A DNA stretch of 64,000 nucleotides, from NCBI GenBank assembly GCA_020250175.1, contig JADCEN010000033.1, positions 100,089 through 164,088 on the forward strand. The letters are read 5' to 3'. The notes beneath the pieces are model-generated. The model did not search any database. It had not been told where the DNA came from and saw nothing but the letters and a program-made list of their open reading frames with translations. The translations under genes were made by a program, and so were the position numbers. Below, piece after piece: positions 1,321-64,000 of this stretch (position 1 is the stretch's first letter; each line of letters starts with the position of its first letter). Source of the stretch: Rhodobacter sp. (GTDB lineage: Bacteria; Pseudomonadota; Alphaproteobacteria; Rhodobacterales; Rhodobacteraceae).

Positions 1321-2919
1321 TCAGGCGGTCAGCCAGGCGACCAGAGCGCGCGTGGACCCATCCTTGCCATCAGCGCTGTCGCGCCCTTCCAGGATCGGCT
1401 GCAGCGCCAGGGCCAGCTCCTTGCCCAGTTCCACCCCCCATTGGTCAAAGCTGTTGATGCCCAGGATCACCCCTTCGACAAAGACCCGGTGTTCATACAG
1501 CGCGATGATCCGGCCCAGCGTGAAGGGATCAAGCCGGGCATAGGCCAGCGTGGTTGACGGGCGGTTGCCCGGAAAGACGCGGTGGCGCGCCTGCCGGTCC
1601 AGTTCGGCCCCTGCAAGCCCCTTGCGCGCCAGCATCGCCCGCGCCTCGTCCAGGCTGCGGCCGCGCAGCAAGGCTTCGGACTGGGCCAGGCAATTGGCGA
1701 CCAGCAGCAGGTGCTGATGTGCCAGATCCGGCTCGTGCCCCGTCTTCGCCAGCAGGAATTCGCAGGGAATCACGCGGGTGCCCTGATGGATCATCTGATA
1801 GAAGGCGTGCTGGCCGTTCGTGCCCGGCTCTCCCCAAACCACGGGGCCGGAATTGACCGGCAGGTCGCCGCCGTCCATGCTCACGCGCTTGCCGTTGCTT
1901 TCCATCTCCAGCTGCTGCAGATAGGCGGGCAGCCGGCTGAGGCGCTGGTCATAGGGCAGCACCGCCCGTGTGGCATGGCCGCAGCCCTGATTGTGCCAGA
2001 TGCCGACCAGCGCCAGCAGCACCGGCAGATTCTGCGCAAAGGGCGCGTCGCGAAAGTGCCGGTCCATCGCAGCCCCGCCCGCAAGGAAGCGGTCGAAGTT
2101 TTCCGGCCCCACCGCCAGCATCAGCGGCAGCCCAATCGGCCCCCAAAGCGAATAGCGCCCGCCGACCCAATCCTCAAACCCGAATACGCGGGCCGCGTCG
2201 ATGCCGAAGGCCGCCGTCCGGTCTGCCGCTGTCGAGACGGCCGCGAACTGCGCCGCCGGATCGGCAACGCGCCGCGCCATCCAGGCCTTGGCGGTTTGCG
2301 CATTGGTCATGGTCTCGATCGTGGTGAAGGTCTTGGAGGCCACGATCACCAGGGTTGTTTCCGGGTTCAGCCGCGCCAGCACGTCATGCACATGCGCGCC
2401 GTCGATGTTCGAGACGAAATGACAGCGCGGCCCGTCGGCAAAGGGGGCCAGCGCCAGCACCGCCATCGCCGGGCCAAGGTCTGATCCGCCGATGCCGATA
2501 TTGACCACATCGGTGATCGCCCCGCCCTGGCCCTGAAAGCGGCCGTCGCGCAGATCACGCGCAAAGGCCTGCATCCGCGCATGGGTGGCGCGGACGGGAC
2601 CCATCACATCGGCCCCGTCCAGGATCACCGGATCGGCCAGATTGCGCAGCGCGGTATGCAGCACCGCGCGGCCTTCGGTTTCGTTGATCCGCGCGCCAGC
2701 AAACATCGCGTCGCGCCTGGCGGCAACATCGGCGTCTGACGCGATTTCCAGAAGCAGATCAAGCGTTTCGTGGTCGATGTTCGTCTTGGAATAGTCAAAC
2801 AGCATATCGTCCAGACGCGCCGAAAACTCTGCCGCCCGCCCGACGTCGAACAGATCAAGGATGCGGCGGCCCTGTACGGCTGCGGCCTTGTCCGTCAGGC
2901 GTTTCCACTGCGATTTCAT
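1321..2919 (-). CDS. pgi: Glucose-6-phosphate isomerase
   Basis: The product interconverts glucose-6-phosphate and fructose-6-phosphate in the cytosol. At 532 residues it has the length of the large bacterial PGI family. Signature segments are present: [16 protein letters not shown] in the N-terminal SIS domain, [20 protein letters not shown] in the centre (with the catalytic Glu), and [14 protein letters not shown] near the C-terminus with the conserved Gln/Lys. It is the third gene of a minus-strand operon zwf-pgl-pgi, with only three bases between pgl and pgi. Grouping it with the oxidative branch suggests cycling of hexose phosphates through the Entner-Doudoroff or pentose phosphate route. 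This is family knowledge combined with context. Confidence 0.97.
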
Positions 2920-2922
2920 CTG

Positions 2923-3594
2923 TCACTCCGCCCAATGAACCGTTGCATGTGCCAGCACCGCCCGGACCGGTGCCTGGGCCGGGGTCAGCCCCTGTGCCCG
3001 GTCGAGTGCCGCGCGCTTTTCCGGCCCTGTGATCAGGATATGGGTCGTCATCGCCCCTTTCAGCACCGGCGCTGTCAGCGTGATGCGCGGCTCTGCGGCG
3101 GCACCGGCGCGCAGCGCCATCAGGATCGGGGCCTGATCCGACAGCGCCTCGGCCAGACGGTCGGCACCCGCAAACAGTGAGGCCGTGTGCATGTCGGCCC
3201 CCATCCCCAGCAGCAGGACCGAAATCGGGAGATGCGGTGCGATGCCCGCCGCAAGCGCGTCCAGACGGTCTTCGGGCCGGTCCGCTTCAGCATAAAGCGG
3301 CACAAGCCGGGCCGCGGCAGCACGCCCCACCAGAAGGCGTTCGCGCAGAAGGCGCGTGTTTGATCGCGGGCTGTCGCCGGGAACCCAGCGTTCATCGTTC
3401 GGAAAGACGGCGACATTGGCCCAGTCCAGATCGACGCCCGACAATATGTCAAAGACCGGCCCCGGCGTGGTGCCACCGGGCACGCACAGGCTGGCGTGCC
3501 TGTCGCGCCGCAGAAAACCGCCCAGATCGCCCGTGATGGCATTGGCCAGCGACAGCATCAACAGGTCACGATCCGGATATTCGATGAATTTCAT
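2923..3594 (-). CDS. pgl: 6-phosphogluconolactonase
   Basis: This 223-residue enzyme hydrolyses 6-phosphogluconolactone to 6-phosphogluconate, the step after glucose-6-phosphate dehydrogenase. It resembles the glucosamine-6-phosphate isomerase/lactonase fold. Visible family segments are LCVPGGTTPGPVFDIL near residue 40, NDERWVPGDSPRSN near residue 65, and LLLGMGADMHTASLFAGA near residue 130, which holds the GMG..xHTASLFP-like active-site loop. Its ATG overlaps the zwf stop by four bases (ATGA), so translation is likely coupled. It lies between zwf and pgi, as usual in Rhodobacteraceae. The sequence shows no anomaly. Confidence 0.96.
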   Translation of the reverse strand: MKFIEYPDRDLLMLSLANAITGDLGGFLRRDRHASLCVPGGTTPGPVFDILSGVDLDWANVAVFPNDERWVPGDSPRSNTRLLRERLLVGRAAAARLVPLYAEADRPEDRLDALAAGIAPHLPISVLLLGMGADMHTASLFAGADRLAEALSDQAPILMALRAGAAAEPRITLTAPVLKGAMTTHILITGPEKRAALDRAQGLTPAQAPVRAVLAHATVHWAE

Positions 3595-5045
3595 TCCTTG
3601 ATCTCGCGCCAGCGCCGCCCGTCGCGGTGCAAAAGCATCAAGGCGTCTTCGGGGCCGGATGTGCCGGGATCATAGGGTTTGGGGCGGCGGCCCGCAGCCT
3701 CCCATCCGGCGATGATCGGGTCGGTCCAGGCCCAGGCCGCCTCTACCTCATCCCCGCGCATGAACAGGGTCTGGTTGCCGCGGATCACATCCATGATCAG
3801 CCGCTCATAGGCATCGGGAATATCGGCCCCCTCGGCCCCCAGCGCCTCGGCAAAGGACATGTCCAGCGGCACCTGGACCAGACGCATGCCGCCGGGCCCC
3901 GGTTCCTTGATCATGACCATCAGGTTCATGCCCTCGTTCGGCTGCAGCCGGATCACCAGCACATTCTCGCGCCAGCCGGGGGCATCATCAAAGATCGAAT
4001 GCGGCGGCTCGCGGAAGGTGATGGCAATCTCGCTGGCGCGCGCGCGCAGCTTCTTGCCGGTACGCAGGTAAAAGGGTGTGCCCTTCCAGCGCCAGTTGGA
4101 AATGCCCACCTTCAGCGCAACATAGCTTTCGGTCAGCGAGTCCGGATTTTCGGCATCGGTCAGATAATCGGGTTGCCCGTTTGCGGCACTGTATTGTCCC
4201 CGCACGATCTGGTCCTGGGCCACCGGATCCAGCGCGCGGATCACCTTCAGCTTTTCGTCCCGCACCGCGTTGGGGTCGAAATGATAGGGCGGCTCCATCG
4301 CGATCAGGCACAGAAGCTGCATCATGTGGTTCTGCACCATGTCGCGCATCGCACCGGATTTGTCATAATAGCTGCCGCGCCCGCCCACGCCCACGGTTTC
4401 GGCCACCGTGATCTGCACATGGTCGATGTGCTGGGCGTTCCACAGCGGTTCGAACAGGATATTGGCAAAGCGCACCGCCATCAGGTTCTGTACCGTTTCC
4501 TTGCCCAGGTAATGGTCGATGCGGTAAATCTGGCGTTCGGCAAAATGCGCGGCCAGCGTGGCGTTCAGCGCCCTGGCCGATGCCAGATCGCGCCCGAAGG
4601 GCTTTTCCACCACGATGCGGCTGTCGTCATTGGCAATGCCATGCTGGTGCAGGCGTTCCGCAAGGTCGCCGAACAGCGAAGGTGCGACCGAGAAGTAGAA
4701 GGCACCGATCATGCCCGGGCGCATTTCTGCCTTGAGCTGCGCCCAGCCGCCGGTTCCCGTGGCGTCAATCGGGACATAGCCGATGCGCCCGAGAAACCCG
4801 TCGATCCTTGCGGCGTCGCGCTTGTCGGGGCTGACAAATTCCTCGATGGCGGACCGGACCTGCGCCCGGAACTCGGCCGGTGTCATGGCAGAGCGGGCGG
4901 CACCGATGATCCGGCTGTCGACCGGCACCTGGCCTGCCCAGAACCGGCGGTACAGGCCGGGGAAAATCTTGCGCCGGGCAAGGTCGCCCGTGGCCCCGAA
5001 GATGACAAGGTCGAAGGTATCGACCGGGATGACGCGCGATACCAT
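3591..5045 (-). CDS. zwf: Glucose-6-phosphate 1-dehydrogenase
   Basis: This enzyme oxidises glucose-6-phosphate to the lactone with NAD(P)+, feeding the Entner-Doudoroff and oxidative pentose phosphate routes. The ORF track start is too far upstream. The ATG at 5045 gives 484 residues, is preceded by a GGTGGAG ribosome-binding site, and leads directly into the nucleotide-binding motif FGATGDLARR at residues 16-25. The substrate-binding signature RIDHYLGKETVQN is present near residue 175, as is the KPFGRDLASA segment. It is the first gene of the zwf-pgl-pgi operon. Cofactor preference cannot be read from the sequence. Confidence 0.97.
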   Translation of the reverse strand: MVSRVIPVDTFDLVIFGATGDLARRKIFPGLYRRFWAGQVPVDSRIIGAARSAMTPAEFRAQVRSAIEEFVSPDKRDAARIDGFLGRIGYVPIDATGTGGWAQLKAEMRPGMIGAFYFSVAPSLFGDLAERLHQHGIANDDSRIVVEKPFGRDLASARALNATLAAHFAERQIYRIDHYLGKETVQNLMAVRFANILFEPLWNAQHIDHVQITVAETVGVGGRGSYYDKSGAMRDMVQNHMMQLLCLIAMEPPYHFDPNAVRDEKLKVIRALDPVAQDQIVRGQYSAANGQPDYLTDAENPDSLTESYVALKVGISNWRWKGTPFYLRTGKKLRARASEIAITFREPPHSIFDDAPGWRENVLVIRLQPNEGMNLMVMIKEPGPGGMRLVQVPLDMSFAEALGAEGADIPDAYERLIMDVIRGNQTLFMRGDEVEAAWAWTDPIIAGWEAAGRRPKPYDPGTSGPEDALMLLHRDGRRWREIKE

Positions 5046-5875: not shown

Positions 5876-6120
5876 AGGTCTTGGCCCAACGGTTACTGCT
5901 GTGATCGGACAGGCTGCAGGCAAGCCGAACAAAAGCAAGGATGATCTTGCCGGGCAGGTATCGCCGCAGTCTTGCAAGAGTCAAACGGTTGGCGCAGGAT
6001 CGGCCCTTGCGGCCACGCGCGCCGAAGAGACGGCGGGCATGACCAAGGCTATATGGACAGGGCCACCCTCCCATGCTGGCGCTTGGCGGTTGGTCTATGG
6101 GAATTGGTCAGACTGTGACA

Positions 6121-7050
6121 ATGCTGTGGGGGCAGGTCCGTTGCGCGTGTTGTACCGCCCGGCACGTGATCGCCTGCTGTATCATTTGTCTGGCGCTATC
6201 GGCCTGCAACCGGCTCGGGTTTGTTATTGATGCAGTCCGTGATCCGGCAGCGCGCGAAGTTGTGGTCACAAACGACGGAACTTACAGCCTTTATTCAATA
6301 ACCACAGGGCCGCCCACCCACGCAGGACCTGACAGGGTGTTGTATTTCATCGGGGGGTCAGGTTGCGCCTCACTTTCGGTCTATCTGACCTATTACTTTC
6401 GCGGCTTTCCGGGTGGATACAAGGTTTACGCCCTCGAAAAGGAAGGCGTATCGCCTGGCGGGTTCGGATTCGGCTGTTCTGCGGAATTCTGGAACAGCTA
6501 TACCCTTGACCGGATGACAGAACGTAATCTTGAGATGCTGCAGATTGTCATGGACAGACATGGTGCAGCGCTTGCGGGGATTATTGGCACATCTGAAGGC
6601 GGGCCGATTGCAATCAAGCTGGCGGCCAGCCAGCCGGACATCCCGCGCCTTGCCGTGATCGCTGCCGGCGGCATGACGATGCGCGAAGCGCTGACCATCC
6701 TTGCCCGCAGGCGCAATCAGGAAAGCGACCTGAACACCCTGCTGACACAAATCGATCAGGACCCTCTGGCAACGGATCGGTTCGTTCTTGGAATGACGCA
6801 TGCCTATTGGACGTCCGTTCTGGACGACGACCCAACCCCGGATCTGAAAGCGCTGCGGGGGCCGGTTATTGTCGTGATCGGCGCGCAGGATCAGAATGTG
6901 CCCGTCGACTCCGCCCGGAAAGCCGCCGCCGTTCTCAGGCACGGCAAGCTGTGGGAGGTGGAGGGAGCGGACCACCTATTCGACAGCCCGACGGGAAACC
7001 GCCGGGCCGAGGTTATGCAGGCCGTCGGAGAGTTCTTCAATGCGGAGTAA
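6121..7050 (+). CDS. Putative lipoprotein alpha/beta hydrolase
   Basis: This encodes an exported alpha/beta-hydrolase-fold protein of about 309 residues. With the ATG at 6121, a signal peptide ends in the lipobox LALSAC, with the lipidated Cys at position 29. ATGs at 6073 and 6097 would lengthen it, and no ribosome-binding site decides clearly. A catalytic triad is visible: Ser158 in GTSEGGP, an Asp in GAQDQNVP, and His in GADHLFD. An early GGSGCAS loop could form the oxyanion hole. Cys pairs suggest a periplasmic or outer-membrane location. No substrate can be named. Codon use and GC are lower than in neighbouring genes, which hints at accessory status. It has no operon partner. Confidence 0.75.
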   Translation: MLWGQVRCACCTARHVIACCIICLALSACNRLGFVIDAVRDPAAREVVVTNDGTYSLYSITTGPPTHAGPDRVLYFIGGSGCASLSVYLTYYFRGFPGGYKVYALEKEGVSPGGFGFGCSAEFWNSYTLDRMTERNLEMLQIVMDRHGAALAGIIGTSEGGPIAIKLAASQPDIPRLAVIAAGGMTMREALTILARRRNQESDLNTLLTQIDQDPLATDRFVLGMTHAYWTSVLDDDPTPDLKALRGPVIVVIGAQDQNVPVDSARKAAAVLRHGKLWEVEGADHLFDSPTGNRRAEVMQAVGEFFNAE

Positions 7051-61147: not shown

Positions 61148-62866
61148 ATGACCGAGGTTGTGACATCTGCCCAAATGCGCGCCATCGAGGCGGCAGCGAT
61201 TGCAAAGGGTTCCGTCACCGGGCTGGAGTTGATGGAGCGCGCCGGTGCCGCCGTTGTCGCGGCGGTCTTCGCCGAATGGCCGGAGCTTGCGGGCGGCGCG
61301 CACCGGGCCGTGGTGCTCTGCGGTCCGGGCAACAATGGCGGCGACGGGTTTGTGGTGGCGCGGCTGTTGAAGGCGGCAGGCTGGGCGGTGGACGTGTTCC
61401 TTTACGGCGACGCCGCAAAGCTGCCTCTGGATGCGCGGGTGAACCATGAGCGATGGAGGGGAATGGGAGAGGTTGCGGCCCTGTCCTTTCCCGACGTGAC
61501 CGGTGCAGAGGGCGAGCGCTTCGGCGACGCCGTGTTTGGCATTTCGCAGACCGCCCTGCTGGTCGATGCGCTCTTCGGGATCGGCTTGACGCGCCCCGTG
61601 GCCGGGTTGCATCCGCTGCTGACTGGGAATGACATATATGCGACGTTTGGTGATCTGATGCCGGTCCGCTTCGTGTCGGTCGACATGCCCACCGGGATAT
61701 GCGCCGACAGCGGACGGGTGTTGCGTGTGGACCCCGGGGCGCCGATGCCCTGGGACGCCTTTCAGGCTGCCCTGACGGTGACGTTCCATGCCCTGAAACC
61801 CGGTCATCTGCTGGCCGATGGCCCCGAGTATTGCCGCAAGGTGGTGGTGGCCGACATCGGGCTGGGCCCGCTTGCGGCGGGATCGGGGAAGATCGGGCTG
61901 GACCTGGTCGGCAGACCCGACACTGCAAGGCTTTCAAAGCGTAGCGGGCACAAGTACAGCCACGGCCATGCGCTGATCCTGTCGGGCGGCATCGGGCGCG
62001 GCGGGGCCGCGCGCCTTGCAGCGCGCGGCGCGCTGCGGATCGGGGCGGGGCTGGTGACGCTGGGTTGCCCTCCTTCTGCGCTGACCGAGAACGCGGCGCG
62101 GCTGGATGCGGTGATGCTTCGCCCGGTAAAGGATGCGGCGGCGCTGGCGGGACTGCTGACGGATACGCGGATCAACGCGCTTTGCCTCGGGCCGGGGCTG
62201 GGGGTGGAACGGGCAGCGGCGCTGCTGGCACTGGCGCTGCGGGAAAGCGGCGGGTCCGGGGGTGGCAGAGGCCCCGGCCCGGAGGCCGGGGCGCCGAAGC
62301 GCGCGCGGCGGGCGGTGGTGATCGATGCCGACGGGCTGACGGCGCTGGCGGGGGATGCCGCATTGTTCGGGCTGCTGCACGACGGCTGTGTGCTGACGCC
62401 GCATGGCGGCGAATTCGCGCGGCTCTTTCCCGATGTCGCCGCGCGGCTGGAAGCACCCGCGCAGCGTGGTCCCGCCTTTTCCAAGGTGGATGCGACGCGC
62501 GAGGCGGCGGCACGGGCGGGCTGCGTGGTGCTTTACAAGGGGCCGGATACGGTGATCGCCGATCCTGCGGGGCGGTGCAGCATCAACCCGGCCTCTTGTG
62601 ACCGTGCGGCCCCCTGGCTGGCGACGGCCGGTTCCGGCGATGTGCTGGCGGGTCTGATCGCCGGGCTTCTGGCGCGGGGCTTCAGCCCGTTCACGGCGGC
62701 GGAAACCGCAGCCTGGCTTCACACCGAAGCGGCCTTGCTGTTCGGTCCCGGTCTGATTGCGGAAGACCTGCCCGATTTGCTGCCGCAAGTGCTGCGCCGG
62801 CTGTTGGATCAGCGCGGTCCAACGGTCGCTGCGGCACTGTCCACCGATGGCGGTCCCTACTTGTAA
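61148..62866 (+). CDS. nnr: Bifunctional NAD(P)H-hydrate epimerase/dehydratase
   Basis: A 572-residue fusion that repairs damaged NAD(P)H hydrates. The N-terminal epimerase domain (about residues 1-215) contains CGPGNNGGDGFVVARLL, and the C-terminal ADP/ATP-dependent dehydratase domain (about residues 250-540) has GLGPGLGVERAA-like ligand loops and TAGSGDVLAGLIAGLLARG with the catalytic Asp. An inserted linker near residue 375 (GGSGGGRGPGPEAGAPKRAR) is low-complexity. It is divergent from glnB. Confidence 0.94.
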   Translation: MTEVVTSAQMRAIEAAAIAKGSVTGLELMERAGAAVVAAVFAEWPELAGGAHRAVVLCGPGNNGGDGFVVARLLKAAGWAVDVFLYGDAAKLPLDARVNHERWRGMGEVAALSFPDVTGAEGERFGDAVFGISQTALLVDALFGIGLTRPVAGLHPLLTGNDIYATFGDLMPVRFVSVDMPTGICADSGRVLRVDPGAPMPWDAFQAALTVTFHALKPGHLLADGPEYCRKVVVADIGLGPLAAGSGKIGLDLVGRPDTARLSKRSGHKYSHGHALILSGGIGRGGAARLAARGALRIGAGLVTLGCPPSALTENAARLDAVMLRPVKDAAALAGLLTDTRINALCLGPGLGVERAAALLALALRESGGSGGGRGPGPEAGAPKRARRAVVIDADGLTALAGDAALFGLLHDGCVLTPHGGEFARLFPDVAARLEAPAQRGPAFSKVDATREAAARAGCVVLYKGPDTVIADPAGRCSINPASCDRAAPWLATAGSGDVLAGLIAGLLARGFSPFTAAETAAWLHTEAALLFGPGLIAEDLPDLLPQVLRRLLDQRGPTVAAALSTDGGPYL

Positions 62867-62982: not shown

Positions 62983-63067
62983 GCGGGCGTGGCGAAACTG
63001 GCAGACGCACCAGATTTAGGTTCTGGCGCCGCAAGGCGTGGGGGTTCAAGTCCCTTCGCCCGCACCA
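62983..63067 (+). tRNA. tRNA-Leu (anticodon UAG)
   Basis: A complete cloverleaf: acceptor GCGGGCG pairs with CGCCCGC, anticodon stem CCAGA/TCTGG carries loop TTTAGGT (anticodon TAG), a long variable arm GCCGCAAGGCG marks a class II tRNA, the T-loop GGTTCAAGTCC is present, and CCA is encoded. It decodes CUA. Its 3' end overlaps the tail of an hsdS-like gene on the opposite strand, a sign of an integration site. Confidence 0.97.
63046..63067. other. Candidate attachment site (tRNA-Leu 3' end)
   Basis: The last 22 bases of tRNA-Leu also encode the last six residues and stop of the antisense hsdS-like frame. Integrases commonly use tRNA 3' ends, and foreign-type genes start immediately beyond it, so this is likely the left edge of an island. 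No integrase gene is in the window and the matching repeat lies outside it. Confidence 0.45.
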
Positions 63068-63873
63068 CCACGAATTGACGTCTCCACCTTATCGGCTGAA
63101 TAGACGGCGGTTTCGAAGTCGGCCCAAGCTTTCGCGCGGGCCTTCGCTGCGTCCTCGCGCTGCTGTGCGGCTTTGGCAAGCGCATAATCAAATTCTTGCG
63201 CTAGCCTCTCTTGGACATCCATCGGCGGGACAGGAATAGGAGCCGCTTTCACAACCGTTGAATTGATTGTGCCAAGGCCGCTGGTTGTCTTCCCCTCCTC
63301 AAAGAAATGCGCGCGGCCAGCCCCACTATTGAACCAATAGGCGGCAAACTCGGGAACAACCTTCGCCTTGTCCATTCTTGCCCGGATCAGGTGGTTCTGG
63401 TGGACGCAATCTGGGATTTCGTCCAACCAAAGGGCCACGCGCCCAAGGTTCTCTCGTGAGCCATTGCCTTCAACAAACAACAAATCGCGATCTTCAAGAC
63501 GAATTCGGGCAAAATCCGGTCCCGAAATCTCGATATACTTGATTTCGTCAAGGACAAGCCGTCCGCGCTGCACGTTTGCAACGCGAAGATATGGCTTCGA
63601 GTTCTTGCCGGGCCGGTTGCCGGGGTGTTTCTGCACCCCATAGGCAACATCGCCAACACTGCTGAGCGGCACCATGGGATACGTCGGTGGCGGTCGGACG
63701 TCCGGATGCTGACTTCGCAAGATCGCATCATGGCTCCAACGTTCAAGGTCTTTGAAGCGGGCCATCAGAATGCGGCGTTCTGGCAGCGTGGTTGGTGCTG
63801 ACACGCCGAGGGCCGATTCGAAGGCCTCGGCGACCGAAGTCTCGGTCGCGGCGGCCTCACACCTTAGGCTCAA
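63046..63873 (-). pseudogene. Type I restriction specificity subunit, 5'-truncated (hsdS)
   Basis: About 275 codons of a type I S subunit: a conserved spacer-type start (AEAFESALGVSAP), a target-recognition domain beginning MARFKDLERWSHDAIL and PMVPLSSVGDVAYGVQKHPG, and a closing helix with PPMDVQERLAQEFDYALAKA and ARAKAWADFETAVY. The usual S protein has two such halves; the upstream half is missing. The TTG at 63873 is not a convincing start, and a TGA lies just upstream, in the IS30 end. So an insertion cut the gene. The C-terminus runs into the tRNA-Leu 3' end. No hsdM or hsdR is present in the window. It is probably inactive. Confidence 0.8.
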
Positions 63874-64000
63874 GTTTCAAGTGCAACACCCGGAGCCTGA
63901 AAGGTATAGGATGTTGCGATGGACCAAGGAAGCAAGCACCTCAGCAGTGAGGAACGTGGCGTGATCTTTTCCGAGCATAGCCGTGGGAGTAGCCAGCGAG
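63874..64000 (+). mobile_element. IS30-family element, left end (partial)
   Basis: The hsdS frame stops abruptly near 63874, where the sequence becomes AAGTTTCAAGTGCAACACC, a plausible IS30-type terminal repeat. A transposase frame starts 45 bases on. The element continues beyond the window. The exact boundary is inferred. Confidence 0.6.
63919..64000 (+). CDS. IS30-family transposase (partial, N-terminus)
   Basis: Only the first 27 residues are in the window: MDQGSKHLSSEERGVIFSEH followed by SRGSSQR. This closely matches the N-terminal helix-turn-helix (HLSxEERxxIxxxxxxGxSxR) of IS30-family DDE transposases. The gene runs off the right edge, so intactness is unknown. It lies just inside the element's left end, which interrupts hsdS. 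Confidence 0.82.
   Translation, partial: MDQGSKHLSSEERGVIFSEHSRGSSQR

What the first reader, a model, noticed from the sequence alone, without database searches (positions are those of the whole stretch)
63046..63067. tRNA-Leu 3' end doubles as the tail of an hsdS-like gene
The overlap of a foreign-type gene's last codons with a tRNA 3' end marks a probable integration junction. The chromosome to the left is core; the DNA to the right is likely an island that extends past the window.
Basis: partly seen in the sequence, partly recalled or inferred. Interest (0 to 1): 0.5.

Follow-up and report, generated by a model that had tools for sequence, protein, structure and literature searches.

The report
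Broken hsdS remnant beside tRNA-Leu
Right after a leucine tRNA gene, where relatives carry the trigger-factor gene tig, this bacterium has only a broken half of a restriction-enzyme gene cut by a jumping element, a fairly ordinary scar of foreign DNA whose one notable side effect is that tig seems to be gone.

Summary
tRNA-Leu(UAG) lies at 62983-63067. An antisense frame of type I specificity (HsdS) type ends at 63046, so its last codons overlap the tRNA 3' end by 22 bases. The frame is the C-terminal half of an HsdS (second recognition domain). Its 5' half is cut off at 63863 by the left end of an IS30-family element, and the contig ends there at the window's last base.

Synteny supports a junction at the tRNA 3' end. 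In three congeners the order is nnrD, tRNA-Leu, tig, acpP, fabG, fabD, and the match to the window stops at 63067/63068. In this genome acpP-fabG-fabD sits on a small contig that ends in an IS5-type transposase 207 bases past where tig should end. No tig is found in the assembly (99.96% complete).

Site-specific integration is not shown. No second copy of the tRNA end exists in the assembly (up to 3 mismatches in 23). None of the 12 integrase genes is seen beside this tRNA. No type I hsdM is found. The likeliest reading is an eroded acquired element whose remainder, with tig, was lost by IS-associated deletion.

The parts
61148..62866 (+). nnrD (bifunctional NAD(P)H-hydrate repair enzyme), core gene left of the junction
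   Evidence: Pfam Carb_kinase 2.2e-43 and YjeF_N 1.4e-32; collinear with G003-G005
62983..63067 (+). tRNA-Leu(UAG), intact with CCA
   Evidence: ARAGORN; 94-96% identical in six congeners over the tRNA and immediate flank
63046..63067 (.). 22 bases shared by the tRNA 3' end and the last codons and stop of the hsdS fragment; junction at or within about 10 bases of 63067
   Evidence: sequence; alignments with G003/G004 stop at 63067, with G005 at 63068
63046..63862 (-). C-terminal half of an hsdS-like gene (central linker, second target recognition domain, C-terminal helix); 5' half missing
   Evidence: PADLOC 1.7e-47, PDB 2y7c 6.8e-18, alignment with five plasmid HsdS proteins
63863..64000 (+). 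left end of an IS30-family element (CTTAGGCTCAAG..., transposase start at 63919); contig ends inside it
   Evidence: identical ends on C35, C75, C55, C20; transposase family by related copies; contig length 164088 = window end

Best explanation
The junction is an erosion scar. Foreign DNA carrying a type I restriction-modification locus came to lie directly behind the 3' end of tRNA-Leu(UAG), where relatives have tig. This was most plausibly a tRNA-targeting integrative element, but that step is inferred. An IS30-family element then inserted in hsdS. Later IS-associated deletion removed the 5' half of hsdS, its hsdM, the far end of the element and the neighbouring tig gene, up to an IS5-type element 207 bases downstream of where tig would end. 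What remains is an orphan, probably non-functional half of hsdS that reads its stop codon from the tRNA. Shown: truncated hsdS, synteny break at the tRNA end, IS ends on both sides of the missing stretch, no tig and no type I hsdM detected in the assembly. Inferred: integrase-mediated entry, the order of events, and that the C61 contig (acpP-fabG-fabD) is the other edge of this same scar.
For: Congeners G003-G005 keep nnrD/tRNA-Leu/tig/acpP/fabG/fabD, and the window matches them up to 63067/63068 and not beyond. A tRNA-Leu(UAG) lies within about 2.5 kb upstream of tig in 14 of 20 sampled family genomes, 13 of them co-oriented, so the arrangement is old. Own contig C61 begins matching again 207 bases after the tig stop, directly behind an IS5-type transposase. 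tig: no Pfam hit in the own genome and none with a congener's protein, against 143 of 150 family genomes with a hit. hsdS is cut by an IS30 end. No right flank of the five IS copies carries the CAC/AC duplication or an HsdS frame. All four N6-methylase hits are type IIG fusions, not HsdM. G+C of the hsdS stretch is 57.6% against a window mean of 65.5%, in the lowest 1.6% of slices.
Against: No second att copy and no linked integrase. The assembly is broken on both sides, so adjacency of C27 and C61 is not demonstrated, and a tig-bearing contig could have been dropped. Three other congeners (G001, G002, G006) also have something other than tig behind this tRNA, so the site is rearranged without any hsdS.
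Confidence: 0.6

Rival explanations
1. A largely intact genomic island sits at tRNA-Leu and simply continues beyond the contig break, with integrase, hsdM/hsdR and an att repeat on the far side, followed by tig; those parts are missing only from the assembly.
For: The contig stops in a multi-copy IS, so anything could follow. Twelve integrases exist in the genome, and one of them is 0.8 kb from an IS30 right end on C35.
Against: No second copy of the tRNA end and no tig found in an assembly rated 99.96% complete. No type I HsdM found. None of the five IS30 right flanks continues hsdS.
Confidence: 0.17
2. No site-specific integration ever happened: IS-mediated or illegitimate recombination moved a piece of a restriction locus from elsewhere next to the tRNA, and the 22-base overlap is a frame coincidence.
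For: No att repeat, no linked integrase. Several IS copies with unmatched flanks show that rearrangement is common here. An antisense stop in the T-loop is met in one of three frames.
Against: The breakpoint falls at the tRNA 3' end within about 10 bases, which is what tRNA-targeting integrases produce and is otherwise a small target.
Confidence: 0.2
3. The hsdS fragment is a functional half-subunit (single-domain S protein that dimerises) serving another methylase of the genome.
For: Half-size S subunits can work as dimers (own knowledge of type I systems); the fragment keeps a whole recognition domain and both flanking conserved segments.
Against: It has no native start (the listed TTG lies in the IS), and no type I HsdM is detected.
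Confidence: 0.03

Closest known systems
Integrative elements and genomic islands at tRNA 3' ends (tyrosine-recombinase type, e.g. P4-like islands and ICEs)
   Same: Foreign restriction-type gene starts exactly behind a complete tRNA with its 3' end intact; synteny with relatives stops there.
   Different: No repeated tRNA 3' end on a far side, no integrase seen next to the tRNA, less than 1 kb of foreign DNA visible.
EcoKI-type HsdS specificity subunit (type IA, PDB 2y7c)
   Same: Second recognition domain and conserved segments align (E 6.8e-18).
   Different: First recognition domain and start missing; no hsdM detected in the genome.
IS30-family insertion sequences
   Same: Terminal CTTAGG/CTAAG inverted ends, HTH at the transposase start, NCBIfam transpos_IS30 for a related copy's C-terminus.
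   Different: Only 138 bases of this copy are assembled; no matching 3-base target duplication found for this copy.

Membership tests
Genomic island integrated at a tRNA gene | Complete tRNA retained with foreign DNA beginning at its 3' end | tested here: met
   tRNA intact; match to congeners stops at 63067/63068
Genomic island integrated at a tRNA gene | Direct repeat of the tRNA 3' end at the other boundary | tested here: not met
   only one copy of the 23-base end in the assembly with up to 3 mismatches; only a lone 12-base chance match in 350 kb of fetched own DNA
Genomic island integrated at a tRNA gene | Integrase gene of the element next to the tRNA or at the other end | tested here: inconclusive
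   12 integrases in the genome, none seen beside this tRNA, but the contig ends 933 bases after the tRNA
Genomic island integrated at a tRNA gene | Absent from the same site in relatives | tested here: met
   six congeners carry other genes there; three carry tig
Type I specificity subunit (HsdS) | Two recognition domains with conserved linkers | tested here: not met
   only the C-terminal half is present
Type I specificity subunit (HsdS) | Cognate hsdM in the genome | tested here: not met
   the N6-methylase hits are all type IIG fusions
IS30-family element | IS30-type transposase and matching inverted ends | tested here: met
   from related copies and right ends of the same element

The most novel reading that the evidence does not exclude
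Erosion of an acquired element at tRNA-Leu(UAG) has carried away the adjacent trigger-factor gene, giving a natural tig-null member of a family in which tig is nearly universal, with the tRNA preserved to the last base.
Probability: 0.5. Interest if true: 0.4.

Novelty: new member of a known kind. Interest (0 to 1): 0.22.

Why it matters
It is one more case of restriction genes landing behind a tRNA gene and then decaying. The part worth keeping is the apparent collateral loss of tig, a chaperone gene found in 129 of 133 good-quality genomes of the family. If a closed genome confirms the loss, the strain is a natural test of how a free-living bacterium does without trigger factor, and an example of an element eroding into a core gene.

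Tried and rejected
Direct-repeat and att search: nothing beyond the tRNA itself. Close relatives of the hsdS in the species-representative genomes: none confirmed; exact 26-base junction pattern in the same collection: none. Phage and plasmid collections: only about 25-43% identical HsdS domains in the rows listed. The C35 end, with a C5 methylase and an integrase just behind an IS30 right end, was considered as the continuation of the window; there is no target duplication (GAG against CAC) and no HsdS frame, so it was not adopted. C79 and C48 methylases considered as the missing HsdM: they are type IIG. Two paper searches gave general reports of islands at tRNA genes, none on this junction; no paper was read in full.

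Full report
Observation. ARAGORN finds one tRNA in the window, tRNA-Leu with anticodon UAG at 62983-63067. On the minus strand an open frame runs to a TGA at 63048-63046, so its last codons are the reverse complement of the tRNA 3' end, an overlap of exactly 22 bases. The frame is HsdS-like by PADLOC (Specificity_I, E 1.7e-47, profile positions 189-372 of 392), by the EcoKI S subunit (2y7c, second recognition domain, E 6.8e-18) and, less strongly, by NCBIfam (E 1.6e-22, below the curated cut-off). Pfam Methylase_S alone would not have named it (E 0.14). An alignment with five plasmid HsdS proteins shows a linker, the second recognition domain and a C-terminal segment that ends about where several other HsdS proteins end. 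The native stop may or may not be the one in the tRNA. Since the antisense T-loop reads TTGAAC, any frame entering such a tRNA in that phase stops there, so the overlap by itself proves little.

What lies to the right. The frame's 5' part is cut at 63863 by CTTAGGCTCAAGTTTCAAGTGCAAC, the left end of an insertion sequence; the listed TTG start at 63873 belongs to that sequence. Five contigs of the genome (C27, C35, C75, C55, C20) end about 130 bases into identical copies. C27 is the window's contig and its end is the window's end. The element is IS30-type: a related copy's N-terminus has the HTH_38 domain and another's C-terminus matches NCBIfam transpos_IS30 at E 9e-34. The matching right ends, closing with CTAAG, are at C35 start, C73 end, C37 start, C75 start and C16 start. 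The left flanks end in CTG (three), CAG and CAC; the right flanks begin with CTG (two), GAG, TTC and TAT. The CAC of the hsdS copy has no partner, and no right flank carries an HsdS frame. I infer that DNA next to this copy was deleted after insertion.

Comparison with relatives. All six congeners keep this tRNA-Leu. In G003, G004 and G005 the order is nnrD, tRNA-Leu, about 280 bases, tig, then acpP, fabG, fabD and the rpsF/rpsR/rplI group; the gene named tig is trigger factor by TIGR00115 (E 2.4e-112), while the downstream names come from reading the translations. The window aligns with G003/G004 at 83% up to 63067 and with G005 up to 63068, and not beyond. The first 10 or so bases after CCA also differ among those three, which sets the resolution of the breakpoint. 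G001, G006 and G002 have other genes behind the tRNA. In 20 sampled family genomes a tRNA-Leu(UAG) stands within about 2.5 kb upstream of tig in 14, co-oriented in 13.

The other edge. A 12-kb stretch from G005 finds its own-genome counterpart on C61 and C46 only (leaving aside a short dispersed repeat). C61 is 4262 bases long. It resumes similarity 207 bases after the position of the tig stop, immediately behind an IS5-type transposase, and then breaks off. Nothing in the own genome matches the stretch from the tRNA end through tig. A Pfam search for Trigger_N in the own genome found nothing, and a search with the congener's trigger factor found it in 143 of 150 family genomes, 129 of 133 of good quality, but not in this one. 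The assembly is rated 99.96% complete, so loss is likelier than a gap, though a gap cannot be excluded because both edges end in repeats.

Island or not. The usual marks of a tRNA-borne island were tested. The tRNA is whole and the foreign DNA starts at its end: met. A second copy of its 3' end: not found in the whole assembly with up to 3 mismatches in 23. A linked integrase: 12 integrase genes in the genome, none seen near this tRNA; one, on C80, is beside tRNA-Gln. G+C of the fragment is 57.6% against a window mean of 65.5% (lowest 1.6% of slices), which is suggestive only. A cognate hsdM: none; the four N6-methylase hits are type IIG fusions. I therefore do not file this as a demonstrated island. 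It is best described as a remnant.

Mechanism. Most likely (0.6) an element with a type I system entered behind tRNA-Leu, an IS30 copy inserted in hsdS, and IS-associated deletion removed the rest together with tig, up to an IS5-type copy before acpP. The entry step, the order of events and the adjacency of C27 and C61 are inferred. Rivals are an intact island hidden by the assembly gap (0.17) and a rearrangement without site-specific integration (0.2).

Noticed in passing
G000 whole genome; gap between window 63067 and L061 (C61): No trigger factor gene (tig) is detectable in this genome, although 143 of 150 family genomes have one; the expected site is exactly the broken stretch behind tRNA-Leu.
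   Followed up: yes
L080 (C80) 2878-4452: A P4-type integrase gene lies directly beside tRNA-Gln(UUG) at a contig end, a likely separate integrative element.
   Followed up: no
L074 (C35) 139-2216: A C5-cytosine methylase gene is cut by the right end of the same IS30-type element and followed by a tyrosine integrase; a second restriction-modification gene hit by this element.
   Followed up: partly
L072, L073, L082, L083: Four type IIG restriction-methylase fusion genes in one genome.
   Followed up: no
Own-genome copies of the IS30-type element: At least two of the five left flanks and three of the five right flanks lack a matching 3-base partner, pointing to repeated deletion or recombination at these elements.
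   Followed up: partly
L038 about 5975-6140 as query; L045-L060 and others: A dispersed repeat of about 90-160 bases at dozens of sites in the genome, also near the C61/C46 break between fabD and rpsF.
   Followed up: no
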